DNA of 64,000 nt, taken from positions 1-64,000 of the forward strand of contig JAAUTY010000010.1 in assembly GCA_012031265.1 (NCBI GenBank), written 5' to 3'. Position 1 is the first letter of the stretch, and every line of letters starts with the position of its first letter. Under the pieces are notes generated by a model that worked only from the letters and a program-made list of their open reading frames with translations, was not told where the DNA came from and did not search any database. Positions 14,792-51,379 of this stretch are shown here, in pieces. This stretch comes from Spirulinaceae cyanobacterium SM2_1_0 (GTDB lineage: Bacteria; Cyanobacteriota; Cyanobacteriia; Cyanobacteriales; Spirulinaceae). The translations under genes and the position numbers were made by a program.

Positions 14792-14801
14792 GGAGAACCC
14801 C

Positions 14802-14912
14802 CTAGTACAAGGCGGCGGAAATGAGATCCCCATTCAGGATCCGTAGGATGCGCGTATTGTCTGCACTCATCACTCAAAACTCAGAACTCAAAATTCCGCG
14901 TAGCGGTACTAG
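14802..14912 (+). repeat. MITE-like element copy B
   Basis: A 111-bp element bounded by CTAGTAC on the left and GTACTAG on the right. The core shares GGCGGCGGAAATGAGAT, TGTCTGCACTCATCACTC and AAAATTCCGCGTAGCGG with copies C and E at almost every base. It lies in the intergenic region between the Cys-rich gene and the S66 peptidase gene and disrupts no gene that I can see. Confidence 0.92.
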
Positions 14913-15030
14913 TCCCGCTTGACATCAATAACCTCGCTGTAAATCGCCGCCTATTTTGGGATCAGGAGTTGGGCGATAGGTGTGCATTGGTTACGAAACT
15001 TAGGCCGCCATGTCTAGCGAGACTATCGCC

Positions 15031-16086: not shown

Positions 16087-16398
16087 CTAAATCAACACCA
16101 TCGCCCGCAGAGGGAGTGCAGCCCGTTCATTGAGAGCGAAAAGCGCCGAGAGAAGAAAAGGCGTAGTTTCAGATGAGTCAAGCAAACCATGACGAGATTG
16201 CATTGCGGGGGTAGGGCGAAATGCGGCTATTTGGTCGGGGGTAGGCTGACTGGTCAAAAAACTCAGGATGTAGCGGTAGACCGGAGCGGAAAGCAGGTCG
16301 GGCTGGAGACAGCGGCGCAGTAGCTCTGGCAATTGATCGCGGATGGGGTCGAGTCGCTCCATCAGATCATCAGGAATTTCGATTGTGAGGCTGGCCAT
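16087..16398 (-). pseudogene. Truncated second copy of the HNH-partner gene
   Basis: The first 69 residues (MASLTIEIPDDLMERLDPIR onward to MQSR) are identical to the intact gene at 19519-19872 except for two substitutions. At 16191 the homology stops abruptly and the frame continues into 34 unrelated residues. The HNH nuclease gene that should follow is missing. The copy lies at one end of the 385-bp duplication. The chimeric 103-residue product could still be made, since the start codon and upstream DNA are intact, but it lacks the acidic C-terminal helix of the complete protein. Confidence 0.75.
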
Positions 16399-16575
16399 AG
16401 AGGTTGCGAGTCTTGGCTACTGAGGTTTCGATGTCTGAATTGTAAGCTCGCTGAGGGCGTCGAGCTAGGGCATGAGGCGAGGTTGACGGGCGAGTTGCCA
16501 GTCGGGGGGGATGATGCCGCTGCCTTTGAGGAAGGTGGGGGTGAGGAGGATGGGGTTGTTGTCGGGGGCGGCTAG
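16191..16575. repeat. Direct duplication, copy 1 (empty target site)
   Basis: About 385 bp nearly identical to 19665-20050 in the same orientation, offset 3,474-3,475 bp. I see only a handful of differences: single-base changes near 16207, 16275, 16482 and 16515, and seven versus eight G after 16503. The right end is GGCGGCTAGGGT with no insertion, the unoccupied form of the site that carries MITE copy C in the other copy. Confidence 0.9.
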
Positions 16576-16605: not shown

Positions 16606-16899
16606 ACAACAAATGACGTAGTCTATCAAGCTTTGTGGGGTCAAGGGCACTGTACTCTTATGAAGGTGACGGTCGTGCTGAATTCCTGACACATCCAAGG
16701 ATTTTGAGGCATTTTCATGGTGATCGCCAGAACCCTCAATCTCACAAGGCTTATAGCCCTAATCACCCGTTAGTAGTCCAGTACCAGGTCAAGATCCTGC
16801 AAGATCGCCATGGAAACACTTCGAAAACCGTAATGTATAGGCAGTCTAGCACGATTATCATCTTCTAAGAACTCAGTGCCGCAATTTTAACTCTCGAAG
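16606..16899. other. Gene-free AT-rich left edge of the RHS module
   Basis: I find no coding sequence in these 294 bases. The base composition changes here from the G+C-rich flank to the A+T-rich immunity genes, so a junction of acquired DNA probably lies within it. No clear attachment site or inverted repeat was found by eye. Confidence 0.35.
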
Positions 16900-17469
16900 T
16901 TAAAATGATCCAAATTTATAGAGAAAAGTAAATTGCCCCAACTCTTTTTCTGTCCAAGGGTAGGCACCATTTAAAGTTACTCCATCCAATGACTTCACAA
17001 GGATAGGGAATAGCCTGCCCTTATCAGACAGTAATATACAGTCATCACTATGCTCTAAAAAAATATTTACAGCACTCAGGATAAGTAGATGAATAGATTC
17101 ATAATGGGGAGGGTTTCCTCTAATCCAAATATGCATATTCGGATTAATCCCAAATTCGGCGCTAACAATTTTTGGAAATTCATGCTTTATAGCCCCAACA
17201 ATTAATCCTCTGCCTTTCAGGCATTTTTTTCTATCTTCTCTGACATCCACAGCATGTCTTAGGGCTAATTTCAGCAATAGAAATTCAAGCAGTTCTCTTG
17301 ATTCTACATCCATGGATGCCTCCAAGAGATAGACTTCTCCAAAAATTTGGCTCCGTTCTTCTAAAGTCCAGATATGACCATCAACCTTATCGACCGCAAC
17401 TGTAAGCCCACCTGGGCACTTTGATTCTTCCATCATCTGGCGAGAAGGTATATTGAATAGCCAGTACAT
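16900..17469 (-). CDS. Immunity-like protein of the RHS module (distal)
   Basis: A soluble 189-residue protein in A+T-rich DNA without HIP1 sites. Segments such as GGLTVAVDKVDGHIWTLEER, FLLLKLALRHAVDVREDRKK and PHYESIHLLILSAVNIFLEH suggest a mixed alpha/beta fold; I do not recognise a named family. It is the third gene reading away from the RHS toxin fragment, 36 bases after the 108-residue gene and in the same direction. This is the position in which immunity genes of polymorphic toxin modules stack up. The immunity role is inferred from position only; it could serve a toxin now lost. Confidence 0.6.
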   Translation of the reverse strand: MYWLFNIPSRQMMEESKCPGGLTVAVDKVDGHIWTLEERSQIFGEVYLLEASMDVESRELLEFLLLKLALRHAVDVREDRKKCLKGRGLIVGAIKHEFPKIVSAEFGINPNMHIWIRGNPPHYESIHLLILSAVNIFLEHSDDCILLSDKGRLFPILVKSLDGVTLNGAYPWTEKELGQFTFLYKFGSF

Positions 17470-17505
17470 TGGCTTAGAATCTACAAGTCTTGTGGATTCA
17501 AATTT

Positions 17506-17832
17506 CTATGTAGAAGCGATTGCGGAGTGATGCTTCCTATGGATTTCCATCTTAGCAATCTCGTAAGCTTGCTGCACCGTGATCTTGGGATCTCGATAAT
17601 GAGATGGAAGGATAATCCACTCTTCCCATATCGGGTGTATATCTTCAATAAGCTCTGAGGCATCAAGCGCTGATAAATCAAGCCCGAGATAGATTGTGCC
17701 ACCTTCGGATTTGCCAGCATTACCAAAATTCAAATCTACTTGCTTACCTGATGAAAGAGATAAAGACAAGATGCTCGGCTGTATAGCCTTTTCGTTTCCA
17801 CTGGTTGTAAATAAATCGTAAAACTCTCTCAT
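17506..17832 (-). CDS. Probable cognate immunity protein of RHS toxin module
   Basis: A 108-residue acidic soluble protein starting 14 bases after the toxin stop codon, in the same direction. The start MREFYDLFTTSGNEKAIQPS leads into a beta-rich middle (ILSLSLSSGKQVDLNFGNAG and GGTIYLGLDLSALDASELIE) and a helical end (KITVQQAYEIAKMEIHRKHH). I do not recognise a family. Small acidic proteins encoded directly behind an RHS C-terminal toxin are usually its immunity partner; here that is inference from position and size. Confidence 0.65.
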   Translation of the reverse strand: MREFYDLFTTSGNEKAIQPSILSLSLSSGKQVDLNFGNAGKSEGGTIYLGLDLSALDASELIEDIHPIWEEWIILPSHYRDPKITVQQAYEIAKMEIHRKHHSAIAST

Positions 17833-17845
17833 TTCCTAATACCTG

Positions 17846-19024
17846 CTAGGGTTTATAGACAATAGTTCCTAACCAGGGAGCAGCAATAAACCTATCTAGA
17901 GGCACACTATACGAAGAGCCAGAGCCTACGGGAAGTGGATCCCTTAAAAAGACACTGCCACCTTCTATTTTATCAATCACTACTGCATGTTCACCACCCA
18001 GAGAATCCGATATTATCGTAGCTCCGACAGGCCCTCCATCAAGAGCACTAACAAGCTCCTCTGTAGTCCTGTTGCTTGCAAAAGTAAATCCGCTCAGCTC
18101 AGGAACATCACAGGCTTTTCCTATTCTATTTAGTGCATCAGGTATGTTACTTAAATTCGCACCATCCAAACCAGTTCCTACCCATGAATAATCAAATGTC
18201 TGTCCTCTGATAGGTTGGCCTGCTGGAGGAGTATAACTGCCCTTGTATTCATCTGGGAACACACTATTCCCCTTAGCATACAGGTTATTGAATTCACCAC
18301 CACCCTGTCCATATCTTAGCCCATTGGGAGTTAGTCGAAAATTGGCACCAGTCCAGACAATTACAGGCAAAAAAGGAAGTATATCCCACCAAGTCGTTTC
18401 CCCATTCATTATGTTCACGGTGCTTTGGATCATACCAACCCCAGCACCAAGGAGATCGTATCCTAATGCCCCCTTTGCCCACCAGGGAGCCGCCTGTAAA
18501 CTAGAGAATGGTGCAGCAAAGGAGCTGATCCAAGTGCTTGATATTGCTCCAGCCAATCGCCCGATATTGAAGCCAATCCCACTGTGATTTTGTGTTGCGG
18601 TTGTGCCGTATATCTGACGACGGGCAAAAGTGCTGCCCCCAAAAGTCATTGCATCCCCAAACCCAGCAAAGAAACGGTCGTACTCCGAGATCGCATCCTC
18701 AATGCTGCCCCCGTTCCGCAAAACGCCAAATGACCGAGTCGTCGTGTACTGGAAACCTGCTCCAATCGCCGTCAATGTCGCAATTGCCGCTGCCTCCTGC
18801 AAGCTCGTCACATACCCACTCGGGTCAGTATTGACCACCGGATTGGCATGAGCATACTGATAGTCATGCAAACTCATCGGGTCAGTCAGCGTCCCCTGAT
18901 AAGCATCCGCCGCAATAAACTGCCCCAACGTCGGGTCGTAATACCGCGCCCGCAGATAATCCAACCCCGTCACCGCATCCCGCTGCTCGCCCGCAAACAG
19001 ATACCCCGTCCTCGCTTGGGTCGT
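17846..19024 (-). pseudogene. Orphan RHS-repeat C-terminal fragment with toxin-like domain
   Basis: The open frame starts behind a TGA at 19025 and reads GYLFAGEQRDAVTGLDYLR, then RARYYDPTLGQFIAADAYQG and YQYAHANPVVNTDPSGY. This is the hallmark RHS-repeat-associated core that precedes the variable toxin tip. The long RHS shell upstream is absent, so the gene is a displaced C-terminal end with no proper start (a GTG at 18973 could serve). The remaining roughly 320 residues have hydrophobic segments (residues 110-190), then a C-terminal domain with KACDVP, GGEHAVVIDKIEGGSVFLRD and a final WLGTIVYKP. The Cys...His...Asp order resembles papain- or C39-like peptidase toxin domains; that assignment is inference. 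Confidence 0.75.
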
Positions 19025-19129
19025 TCAACTTGCGAAAGGTCGTACTCGTAGATGACAGCTCTGACGACTATGTCTGTGGAGAATGCAAGCGATTCGGCGT
19101 TTCGCAGTGATCTATGCTGAGGTTGGGAG

Positions 19130-19522
19130 CTAAAGACGCATTCGCTCTCGCTCTGCCAAACGCTCTGGAGTATTGAGTTTTAGCAGTTGAACTGTTGTGC
19201 GTCCTTCTGGCGTTTGACCCCAAATTCTGGTGCCCTGTTGACAGAAGTGCTCATTCCAAGCCTGAGTACGAGGATTGAACAAGAAGCGATACTTCCCTGT
19301 TTGCGGGTCGAAGGAGCCCAGGTCACTACCTTTGTAGCGATTGCAGCGCCAACAGGCATAAGCCAGGTTATCGGCTGCGGTGACACCACCGTGTTTTAGA
19401 GCAATCACGTGGTCGACTTCGTGGGCATAGAAGCTGAGAGGGGCAGGAATTAGACAGTATTCACAATGATCGCCAGCCCGCTCCATCACGGCCCGTCGCA
19501 GAGACTCGGAAATGTAGGTCAC
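19130..19522 (-). CDS. HNH endonuclease
   Basis: A 130-residue single-domain HNH nuclease. The zinc-binding Cys pairs are C-x2-C in GDHCEYCLIP and in ACWRCNRYKG. The catalytic motif is AHEVDHVIALKHGG followed by DNLAYACWRCN. The C-terminal part (TPEGRTTVQLLKLNTPERLA) matches a common cyanobacterial HNH family beginning MTYISESLRRAVMERAG. Its start codon overlaps the stop codon of the upstream small gene (19519) by four bases, so the two are translationally coupled. The target is unknown; possibilities are defence, toxin or homing roles. No intron or transposon context is visible. Confidence 0.9.
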   Translation of the reverse strand: MTYISESLRRAVMERAGDHCEYCLIPAPLSFYAHEVDHVIALKHGGVTAADNLAYACWRCNRYKGSDLGSFDPQTGKYRFLFNPRTQAWNEHFCQQGTRIWGQTPEGRTTVQLLKLNTPERLAERERMRL

Positions 19523-19872
19523 GATGCAGTTTCGGTCGTCAGGTAAGGCAGATTGCCAGCTTTCAGCAAGACGATGAGGTGTTCGATACGCTCATATTCG
19601 TCGAGTTCTTGGGATTCGGTGGGGGTAAGGCTGCCCTCGGCGCTACGGTTGAGGAGATCGCGCAGACGAGATTGCATTGTGGGGGTAGGGCGAAATGCGG
19701 CTATTTGGTCGGGGGTAGGCTGACTGGTCAAAAAACTCAGGATGTAGTGGTAGACCGGAGCGGAAAGCAGGTCGGGCTGGAGACAGCGGCGCAGTAGCTC
19801 TGGCAATTGATCGCGGATGGGGTCGAGTCGCTCCATCAGATCATCAGGAATTTCGATTGTGAGGCTGGCCAT
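19519..19872 (-). CDS. Small partner protein co-encoded with HNH endonuclease
   Basis: A 117-residue soluble protein: an N-terminal beta-strand and helix (MASLTIEIPDDLMERLDPIR), a middle with PVYHYILSFLTSQPTPDQIA and RPTPTMQSRLRDLLNRSAEG, and an acidic helix SQELDEYERIEHLIVLLKAG. I recall this family, often annotated only as hypothetical, directly upstream of HNH nuclease genes of this type in several cyanobacteria. The beginning resembles the short strand-helix DNA-binding start of small antitoxins, but I cannot confirm a ribbon-helix-helix fold. The four-base overlap with the nuclease gene suggests a stoichiometric pair. A nuclease-restraining role is inference. Confidence 0.8.
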   Translation of the reverse strand: MASLTIEIPDDLMERLDPIRDQLPELLRRCLQPDLLSAPVYHYILSFLTSQPTPDQIAAFRPTPTMQSRLRDLLNRSAEGSLTPTESQELDEYERIEHLIVLLKAGNLPYLTTETAS

Positions 19873-20050
19873 AGAGGTTGCGAGTCTTGGCTACTGAGGT
19901 TTCGATGTCTGAATTGTAAGCTCGCTGAGGGCGTCGAGCTAGGGCATGAGGCGAAGTTGACGGGCGAGTTGCCAGTCGGGGGGGGATGATGCAGCTGCCT
20001 TTGAGGAAGGTGGGGGTGAGGAGGATGGGGTTGTTGTCGGGGGCGGCTAG
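19665..20050. repeat. Direct duplication, copy 2 (occupied target site)
   Basis: Near-identical to 16191-16575, same orientation. It covers the first two thirds of the HNH-partner gene and the DNA upstream of it. It ends at CTAG (20047-20050), where MITE copy C is inserted. Beyond the MITE, homology resumes weakly (CTAGGGT, then scattered matches). Confidence 0.9.
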
Positions 20051-20187
20051 TACCGCTACGCGGAATTTTGAGTTCTGAGTTTTGAGTGATGAGTGCAGAC
20101 AATACGGGCATCCTACGGCTCCTGAATGGGCATCTCATTTCCGCCGCCTTGTACTAGGGTGAGGAGGAGTGCTTGATGGGAGGGCAT
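19940..20187 (-). pseudogene. Small gene interrupted by MITE copy C
   Basis: Reading from the ATG at 20187 gives MPSHQALLLTL, then the MITE, then AAPDNNPILLTPTFLKG on the far side. With the element and one CTAG removed, the frame is continuous and parallels MFSYQELTPTLAAPDNNPI of the other copy. An extra G in the G-run near 19978 shifts the frame later. The gene is therefore doubly broken. Confidence 0.6.
20047..20157 (-). repeat. MITE-like element copy C (inverse orientation)
   Basis: A 111-bp element in the opposite orientation to the other copies: CTAGTACCGCTACGCGG at its left end and CCGCCGCCTTGTACTAG at its right. The sequence is almost identical to copies B and E. CTAG is present on both sides, whereas the homologous empty site at 16572 has a single CTAG. 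Confidence 0.95.
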
Positions 20188-24195: not shown

Positions 24196-24426
24196 CTAGG
24201 GACGCGGTCTCAGTTTGGCGATGCGATCGAGGTTTCGGCGTCGCGGTGGGCTGGAAAATAGGTCTAGGCTCACTTTATTATGCTGAAAGCTGTTTGAGAG
24301 TCTGCTGTTGAATGTCTGTGAGTGTTGCCAACAGCGGCGATCGCGCCCTTCGCTCTGATTGTGGTAGCAGACTTGACACTTCTCGAAAAAACAGTAACAA
24401 TAGATACAGAACAAAGATTCGTTCAT
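24196..24426 (-). CDS. Doubtful small Cys-rich protein
   Basis: A 76-codon frame from ATG 24426 with six Cys within its first 34 residues (MNESLFCIYCYCFFEKCQVC, then RRCWQ). The rest is basic and low-complexity. There is no family match that I recognise and no clear ribosome site. The Cys cluster is the only argument for coding; it could equally be chance. Confidence 0.25.
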   Translation of the reverse strand: MNESLFCIYCYCFFEKCQVCYHNQSEGRDRRCWQHSQTFNSRLSNSFQHNKVSLDLFSSPPRRRNLDRIAKLRPRP

Positions 24427-24524
24427 CTCTGTAACCCTAGTGGTCCGCAGAGACGGAAGTAGGGACACATCCCGAAGGAACGCGCCCCATAAACATCAGC
24501 CACAATTCTATGGAGGCGAATACC

Positions 24525-49898: not shown

Positions 49899-51272
49899 AT
49901 GTCAGCTTCGATGACTACGAACATGTCTCCCGACGCACTCTGGAACCAAGTTCTCGAGCGGCTCGAGCGACAACTGACGCGCCCGACGTTTGAAACTTGG
50001 ATCAAGACAGCGACGGCCCGCGAGCTGACAGACGCTTATCTGATCATTTGTGCGCCCAATCCGTTTGCCTGTAGTTGGCTACAGAAGCACTACCTACAAA
50101 CGATTCAGGCCGTGGTCACCGAGATCCTTGGCCAGCCGCTAGAGATTCAAGTCGTCTCCGCTCAGGGCGAAAGCGTCAACGGTCACATGAGTGCCGCCGC
50201 CAGTCGCGAGGAGCGCCGCCAAGCAGAGCGCCAATTCTCGGCTCCAGAATTCAACTCCAAATACGTCTTCTCACGCTTCGTCGTCGGCGCGAACAATCGC
50301 ATGGCGCACGCGGCCGCACTCGCCGTCGCGGAGGCCCCCGGCCGCGAGTTCAACCCTCTCTTCCTCTGTGGTGGCGTCGGCTTGGGCAAAACGCACCTGA
50401 TGCAAGCCATCGGTCACTATCGCCTCGAAATCGACCGCAATTCCAATGTCTTCTACGTCTCGACCGAGAAGTTTACTAACGATCTGATCGCCGCGATTCG
50501 CCAGGACAGCATGGAGCATTTCCGCGAGCACTATCGCGCCGCTGACGTGCTGTTAGTCGATGACCTGCAATTCATCGAAGGCAAAGAGTACACGCAGGAA
50601 GAATTTTTCTACACCTTCAATACTCTCCACGAAGCGGGGAAGCAGGTCGTGCTGGCAGCCGACCGCCCTCCCAACCAGATTCCGCGCCTACAAGATCGCC
50701 TCTGCTCGCGATTTTCGATGGGCTTGATTGCCGACATCCAAACGCCTGACCTTGAAACCCGGATGGCAATTCTGGAGAAAAAAGCCGAGTATGAGAATAT
50801 CCAAATGCCGCGCGAGGTAATTGAGTACATCGCGACCCACTACACTTCCAACATTCGGGAACTGGAGGGCGCACTGATTCGCGCGGTGGCCTACGTCTCG
50901 ATCTCCGGCTTGACGATGACGGTAGCGAATATCTCACCGGTGCTCGGTCCGTCCAACCAGAAAGTAGAAGCCACACCCGAGGCAATTGTGCAGGCAGTTT
51001 CGGATACCTTGGGCGTGCCGATCACCGACCTCAAAGGCAGCTCGCGCCGCCGCGAAATTAGCTGGGCGCGCCAGATCGCCATGTACCTGATGCGCCAACA
51101 CACCGACCTCAGCCTGCCGCGTATCGGCGAAGAATTTGGCGGCAAGGATCACACAACAGTCATGTACAGTTGCGACAAAATCGCCCAATTGCAAAAGAAA
51201 GATGCCAAGCTCAGCCAAATGTTGCTGCAACTGAGCGATCGCATCAACACCATTTCCAGCCACTCGGCCTAG
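49899..51272 (+). CDS. dnaA: Chromosomal replication initiator DnaA
   Basis: 457 residues. Domain I (about 1-85, [20 protein letters not shown]) is followed by a short linker and the AAA+ domain III (about 120-335), with Walker [20 protein letters not shown] and Walker [14 protein letters not shown]. Domain IV is the DNA-binding helix-turn-helix with the DnaA signature [15 protein letters not shown]. The protein is complete. Its TAG stop codon lies in the CTAG into which MITE copy E inserted, so the last residues (HSA) are unchanged by the insertion. Divergent from def. No cluster of DnaA boxes was seen nearby. Confidence 0.97.
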
Positions 51273-51379
51273 TACAAGGCGGCGGAAATGAGATGCCCAT
51301 TCAGGAGCCGTAGGATGCCCGTATTGTCTGCACTCATCACTCAAAACTCAGAACTCAAAATTCCGCGTAGCGGTACTAG
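51269..51379 (+). repeat. MITE-like element copy E (at dnaA stop)
   Basis: A 111-bp element almost identical to copies B and C, bounded by CTAGTAC and GTACTAG. The left CTAG supplies the TAG stop codon of dnaA (51270-51272). Confidence 0.95.

What the first reader, a model, noticed from the sequence alone, without database searches (positions are those of the whole stretch)
16900..19024. Orphan RHS C-terminal toxin module with two immunity-like genes
Only the RHS-associated core (RARYYDPTLGQFIAADAYQG) and the toxin tip are left. The long RHS shell upstream is missing and a TGA closes the frame 17 codons before a possible GTG. Behind it come a 108-residue and a 189-residue gene in immunity positions. 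The tip domain, with KACDVP and GGEHAVVIDKIEGGSVFLRD, suggests a cysteine peptidase-like toxin. Such orphan tips are reservoirs for toxin exchange by recombination at the core sequence.
Basis: partly seen in the sequence, partly recalled or inferred. Interest (0 to 1): 0.65.

Follow-up and report, generated by a model that had tools for sequence, protein, structure and literature searches.

The report
Disarmed orphan Rhs toxin with broken immunity
A cyanobacterium carries the broken-off tip of a bacterial-warfare protein that has lost its cutting active site, followed by a protective gene cut in two by a stop codon, so this looks like a decaying weapon rather than a working spare.

Summary
In detail: TGA, RHS-associated core, pretoxin region, C-terminal tip and two small same-strand ORFs lie at 16900-19024 (minus strand). 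The interpretation needs three corrections. The nucleophile Cys stands in 7 of 7 aligned relatives; the window has Trp there and lacks about 24 residues of that helix, so it is very probably catalytically dead. (2) The 108- and 189-residue "genes" are one frame cut by one TAG; two relatives have a single 305- or 338-residue immunity gene behind a C39 domain with its active site, SitI3-like in the C-terminal half. (3) The two other RHS cores in the assembly are too different to look like recombination partners. Best reading: a displaced RHS tip/immunity module in decay, between 386-bp direct repeats. One oddity: a second genome, its toxin reduced to a remnant, has a TAG in the same column of the immunity gene (about 1 in 190 by chance, tested after the fact). 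Judged from one stand-alone relative, the split falls inside the first immunity domain, against two separate genes. New member of a known kind; moderate interest.

The parts
18812..19003 (-). RHS-associated core; similarity to full RHS shells begins at 19003 (YLFAGEQ..), nothing convincing upstream
   Evidence: TIGR03696 E 1.6e-16, place 18815-19021; tblastx/blastn against six RHS loci
19025..19027 (-). TGA that closes the frame 17 codons before the possible GTG start at 18973
18254..18811 (-). pretoxin region shared with RHS proteins that carry other tips
   Evidence: core plus pretoxin 56-58% identical to L042, L043 and an Oscillatoria plasmid RHS
17849..18253 (-). C39 papain-like toxin domain, disarmed: Gln, His (codon 17987-17989) and the Asp of RDP (17939-17941) kept, nucleophile Cys and most of its helix missing
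   Evidence: alignments A1 and A3
18170..18184 (-). site of the lesion: Trp in the nucleophile column, about 24 residues absent directly behind
17506..17832 (-). first part of the immunity gene (108 codons), ended by TAG at 17506-17508
   Evidence: 41% over 54 residues to the 305-aa gene of L015; same frame as the next part
16900..17469 (-). second part of the same immunity gene, from an in-frame ATG: rest of the first domain plus the SitI3-like part
   Evidence: 34% over 180 residues, E 2e-36, to L015; L015 and G509 relatives hit NF040657 over cut-off, this part itself does not
16191..16575 (.). left direct repeat (truncated copy of the small gene 19519-19872 and its upstream)
   Evidence: 381 of 386 aligned positions identical to the right copy
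19665..20050 (.). right direct repeat
19130..19522 (-). HNH endonuclease gene upstream of the module
   Evidence: PF01844 E 2.3e-13
19519..19872 (-). small gene, at most weakly ribbon-helix-helix-like, in front of the HNH gene
   Evidence: PF01402 E 0.13, below cut-off

Best explanation
This is a displaced RHS C-terminal module in decay. In its working relatives the tip would be a C39 (ComA/PCAT-like) papain-fold cysteine protease toxin; a studied toxin of this kind cuts essential proteins of a neighbouring cell, and one immunity protein encoded directly behind protects the producer. Here the RHS shell is gone, the toxin has lost its nucleophile Cys and most of that helix by an in-frame change, and the single immunity gene is interrupted by one TAG. 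Likely order (inferred): the module lost its shell, the toxin was disarmed, immunity was no longer needed and broke. Shown here: the missing shell, the missing Cys and helix relative to seven relatives, the single frame with one stop, single-gene relatives. Inferred: loss of activity, order of events, target.
For: Relative L015/L018 (Prochloron didemni) has the same tip with the Cys helix, Peptidase_C39 E 5e-8, directly followed by one 305-aa immunity gene; G509 has a C39-like tip (Peptidase_C39 E 4.4e-4, 20.5 bits, just below the cut-off of 22) on a different carrier, followed by one 338-aa immunity gene. Of 8 aligned C39 domains, Gln, His and Asp stand in 8, the nucleophile Cys in 7, all but the window. 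A model of the Prochloron tip (pLDDT 59.6) matches 9l5u, a papain-like cysteine protease toxin/immunity pair: Foldseek E 1.1e-5, Z 12.9 over 121 residues, rmsd 2.8. In Cpe1, replacing the catalytic Cys abolished toxicity (PMC12136450, passages). TAG ends 13 of 33 mechanically found ORFs of at least 200 codons in the window, the tip's own among them, so it is an ordinary stop here. In G653 a broken toxin also goes with an interrupted immunity gene.
Against: Only two relatives with an unbroken gene of this immunity type were found, and the Prochloron tip is itself a fragment: no ATG/GTG/TTG ahead of its Cys and a transposon-type gene directly upstream, yet its immunity gene is unbroken. Tip and immunity frames of the window hold no second stop or frameshift, which a long-dead module would not be expected to keep. 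The TAG sits in the same alignment column as in G653, which random decay gives with probability about 0.005. Sequencing error cannot be excluded.
Confidence: 0.78

Rival explanations
1. Functional orphan reservoir: a silent but intact tip with two immunity genes that can be recombined onto a full RHS gene through the core, as shown for an orphan rhs in Salmonella.
For: Core, pretoxin and tip form one open frame; orphan activation by recombination is documented (PMC3967940, passages); relatives show the same core and pretoxin with different tips.
Against: Nucleophile helix missing; immunity interrupted; the other two cores in the assembly match at 39-40%, whereas the Salmonella case used 522 bp at 95% identity.
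Confidence: 0.07
2. Disarmed but retained: the SitI3-like half, translated from the conserved internal Met, is kept as orphan immunity against the tRNase-type toxins that SitI3 proteins accompany, while the C39-specific part is dispensable.
For: Same-column TAG in two genomes, both beside broken toxins; Met 13 codons downstream in 4 of 4 full-length homologs; stand-alone SitI3 genes near CdiA_C-like toxin ends (P0006 next to a SitI3 gene, CdiA_C E 1.8e-18; by eye in 3 of 6 loci printed, L064, L065 and L074, and in part in L069).
Against: Window P0003 gives no NF040657 hit at E up to 10; only two cases; the Met is not kept in the stand-alone relative L083; no expression data; the G653 contig is short.
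Confidence: 0.09
3. Two genuinely separate immunity genes.
For: Two ORFs with starts; the same split in two genomes.
Against: The 12 codons between them align as protein in all 4 homologs, Phe in 4 of 4 and Glu in 3 of 4 at neighbouring places; a stand-alone 153-aa relative, L083, spans the split as one protein.
Confidence: 0.03
4. Sequencing or assembly error created the TAG and/or the missing helix.
For: The assembly has 149 contigs; reads cannot be seen.
Against: An in-frame loss of about 24 codons, and a same-column stop in a second genome, are unlikely errors.
Confidence: 0.05

Closest known systems
Tox-PLC39 / papain-like cysteine protease toxins (Cpe1; PMC12136450 and PMC3482391, passages seen)
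   Same: C39 papain fold in the relatives; Gln, His and Asp positions; C-terminal tip with an immunity gene directly behind. PMC12136450 already figures such a protein from Roseofilum reptotaenium (a cyanobacterium, recalled)
   Different: Window copy lacks the nucleophile Cys and its helix; immunity of the relatives is 305-338 aa and two-part, against 79-239 aa reported there
Orphan rhs-CT/rhsI modules (PMC3967940, passages seen)
   Same: Core fragment plus tip plus immunity without shell or export signals
   Different: No main rhs gene with a near-identical core found in the assembly; toxin and immunity both broken
SitI3 immunity family NF040657 (SitI3 of Myxococcus: PMC5562445, passages seen)
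   Same: C-terminal half of the two unbroken relatives scores over the cut-off
   Different: Joined to another domain and placed behind a C39 tip rather than a tRNase; the window's own half does not score
Imm35 / YrhB-like immunity (resemblance recalled from memory)
   Same: Helix followed by a VDKxDGxxW-type strand; Imm35 is reported with papain-like toxins Tox-PL1
   Different: No Pfam hit for either unbroken relative

Membership tests
RHS proteins | RHS-associated core domain | tested here: met
   TIGR03696 60.6 bits, cut-off 32.5
RHS proteins | YD/RHS repeat shell | tested here: not met
   No shell similarity upstream of 19003; no YD-repeat match on the window's contig
C39 papain-like protease toxin | Sequence match to Peptidase_C39 | tested here: not met
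   Window tip: none listed at E up to 10; its closest relative P0004: E 5e-8, over cut-off
C39 papain-like protease toxin | Catalytic Cys-His-Asp | tested here: not met
   His and Asp present, Cys replaced and helix missing in the window; Cys present in 7 of 7 relatives aligned
C39 papain-like protease toxin | Papain-like fold | tested here: inconclusive
   Relative: Z 12.9 to 9l5u; window tip model pLDDT 48.9, not searched
SitI3 (NF040657) | Score over the curated cut-off of 31 | tested here: not met
   P0003 no hit; relatives 33.1 and 58.4 bits; P0003 is 34% identical to one of them over 180 residues
Imm35 | Pfam match | tested here: inconclusive
   No family listed for the unbroken relatives at E up to 10; whether the library holds the model was not checked
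Orphan rhs-CT module | Shell-less core plus tip plus immunity | tested here: met
Orphan rhs-CT module | Main rhs gene nearby with near-identical core | tested here: not met
   Three cores in the assembly, the other two on contig C79, 39-40% identical to the query; the assembly is fragmented
Orphan rhs-CT module | Active toxin and immunity | not testable with these tools
   needs expression assays

The most novel reading that the evidence does not exclude
The split of the immunity gene is not random decay: once the C39 toxin is lost, a stop inside the first immunity domain is recurrently tolerated or favoured, and the SitI3-like half, started from a conserved internal Met, is kept as free-standing protection against a different toxin class. 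A two-part immunity protein would thus be a bivalent shield that can shed the half whose toxin is gone.
Probability: 0.1. Interest if true: 0.65.

Novelty: new member of a known kind. Interest (0 to 1): 0.38.

Why it matters
It shows how a polymorphic toxin module can die: the active site lost in frame, the immunity gene interrupted. It also points to a rare immunity type, an Imm35-like (recalled label) plus SitI3 two-part protein behind C39 tips in cyanobacteria, and to a same-column stop in two lineages that can be tested.

Tried and rejected
Rejected: KACDVP as the active site; two independent immunity genes; TAG as a sense codon in this genome; a shell remnant upstream of 19024 (only an 8-residue YEYDLS-like match at E 9.6).

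Led nowhere or gave little: viral contigs with the tip and with A1 (no relative); plasmids with P0004, P0008 and P0009 (no match) and with the Prochloron immunity protein (1 record, a Nostoc SitI3 gene); phages with P0009 (no match); the tip profile in 386 genomes of the phylum (1 of 386, the window's own); PDB by sequence (best E 0.47 and 0.16, a double-glycine-motif protease); synteny downstream of relA in 7 family genomes (fetched; none showed the other four neighbouring genes tried or the intervening module genes), so an empty site could not be shown; the model of the window tip too poor to use; no Pfam family for the immunity relatives. In the alignment I used 8 of the 9 C39 genes; L048 was left out (its ORF has a Cys in that motif but is shorter there).

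Full report
What is there. On the minus strand, from 19024 to 16900: 392 open codons behind a TGA (375 from the GTG at 18973), then 108-codon and 189-codon ORFs. The first stretch is an RHS-associated core (TIGR03696, E 1.6e-16). Similarity to RHS shells starts at 19003; nothing convincing lies upstream of it. An HNH gene ends at 19130 (PF01844, E 2.3e-13). The module lies between direct repeats 16191-16575 and 19665-20050, 381 of 386 aligned positions identical. G+C falls from 0.562 (core) to 0.509 (pretoxin), 0.447 (tip) and 0.398 (immunity) in a window of 0.574, the mosaic expected of a swapped tip (inference).

Core and pretoxin. These are 56-58% identical to RHS proteins with other tips: L042 (G008; an ORF of 1425 aa, open frame 1455), L043 (G015) and a protein of Oscillatoria nigro-viridis plasmid pOSC7112.02, where the gene behind is annotated Imm10. 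The boundary between shared pretoxin and variable tip lies near P0001 residues 226-243. The own genome shows 3 RHS cores, the other two on contig C79, 39-40% identical to the query (42-47% over the shorter stretches).

The tip. The closest relative found is in Prochloron didemni (L015 of G055 and L018, apparently the same contig): 46% identical over 117 residues. It scores Peptidase_C39 E 5e-8, over the cut-off; for the window tip no C39 hit was listed at E up to 10. A model of the Prochloron tip (2-row alignment, mean pLDDT 59.6) matches 9l5u, titled papain-like cysteine protease toxin/immunity pair, at E 1.1e-5 and Z 12.9, rmsd 2.8, 121 residues; a Citrobacter CdiA-CT and ComA/PCAT C39 peptidases follow. 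Whether 9l5u is the Cpe1-Cpi1 pair of PMC12136450 I did not establish. The model's confidence is middling, so the fold rests on sequence and structure together.

The lesion in the toxin. Of 388 genomes of the order, 7 (own included) match the tip profile, with 9 genes; I aligned 8. Gln, His and Asp are invariant. The nucleophile Cys is in 7 of 8; the window has Trp there and lacks about 24 residues directly behind, most of the nucleophile helix. Only two of these relatives (Prochloron, G509) are close; the other five scored E 1e-4 to 6e-4. The KACDVP Cys is in 1 of 8. In Cpe1 the Cys-to-Ala change abolishes toxicity (PMC12136450, passages). That the window tip is inactive is thus inferred with high probability, not shown.

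The immunity gene. The 108- and 189-codon ORFs share one frame; between them are one TAG (17506-17508) and 12 codons. They match the N- and C-terminal parts of the single 305-aa gene behind the Prochloron tip. G509 has a C39-like tip (E 4.4e-4, 20.5 bits, cut-off 22) at the end of a 576-aa protein without an NCBIfam RHS hit, overlapped in the ORF list by a single 338-aa gene. Both relatives score as SitI3 family in their C-terminal half (33.1 and 58.4 bits, cut-off 31); the window's half does not. The N-terminal half resembles Imm35/YrhB as I recall it; Pfam listed nothing. A stand-alone 153-aa relative on a viral-collection contig, L083, covers that half without interruption, so the TAG appears to fall inside the first domain. 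L083 lacks the internal Met and no C39 tip was found beside it.

A caveat on the relatives. The Prochloron tip is itself a fragment: its 156-codon frame has no ATG, GTG or TTG ahead of the Cys, and a transposon-type gene (TnpB by eye) lies directly upstream. Only G509 shows a whole carrier.

A second broken copy. Among 388 genomes of the order, 21 match the G509 immunity protein, own included; 4 of these reach into the N-terminal half: G509, G653, G055, G000. G653 also has one TAG, in the same alignment column; the two unbroken genes have a sense codon there. An in-frame Met 13 codons on is present in 4 of 4. Of the G653 toxin only about 31 C-terminal residues are recognisable (51.6% to G509, E 6.5e-9). 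So 2 of 2 toxin domains with their active site go with an unbroken immunity gene, and 2 of 2 broken ones with a TAG, with the Prochloron caveat. Two random nonsense changes share a column with probability about 0.005 (0.008 if both are TAG; 0.03 within five columns; a simple mutation model); the test was chosen after seeing the data and rests on four sequences. In the family of G653, 6 of 61 genomes match, only G653 itself over the full length.

Verdict. A displaced and decaying RHS C39 module is the best reading. The direct repeats could arise by single-crossover integration of a circle or by duplication, and could delete the module by recombination (inference only). The same-column TAG is the one thing left unexplained.

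Literature. PMC3482391 (passages) lists Tox-PLC39 without an immunity family, in Bacteroidetes, Chloroflexi and Firmicutes, and Imm35 with Tox-PL1. PMC12136450 (passages) figures a papain-like toxin locus of Roseofilum reptotaenium, so the kind is known in cyanobacteria (Roseofilum's phylum is recalled). PMC5562445 (passages): SitI proteins neutralise their cognate SitA toxins, and SitA3 is a tRNase. PMC3967940 (passages): an orphan rhs module reactivated by recombination. Searches listed no paper that I recognised, from titles and abstract starts, as describing a two-part SitI3 immunity behind a C39 tip; that is a small search.

Noticed in passing
window 20043-20158: A roughly 111-bp dispersed repeat, 85-100% identical in 38 further places of the assembly plus one 35-bp piece (334 first-look candidates, 40 scored); two of these places are in the window, 51268-51379 and 14800-14928.
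   Followed up: partly
window 16646-16788: A second dispersed repeat of about 140 bp, whole or in part in 11 further places at 72-90% identity, just behind the immunity gene.
   Followed up: no
L044 7459-10477 (G000:C79, contig end): Two RHS tips in a row, the first with a different, papain-like-looking tip (NCVKCAIAVDATLQGR; label recalled), the second with a pentapeptide-like neighbour by eye: an orphan-tip array in the same genome.
   Followed up: partly
G000:C7:4-96 and G000:C61:4-96: Near-identical YD-repeat stretches at two contig ends, so part of an RHS gene may be lost between contigs.
   Followed up: no
window 24418-24486 (+): Glutamine riboswitch aptamer, Rfam RF01739, E 1.2e-9.
   Followed up: no
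L048, L049, L050, L051: Small stand-alone C39-like proteins (163-184 aa), each followed by a 101-121 aa gene; possibly another toxin/immunity type or a peptide-processing pair.
   Followed up: no
L064 (G532:C282): Two SitI3-type genes close together with CdiA_C-like toxin ends before and between them, by eye.
   Followed up: no
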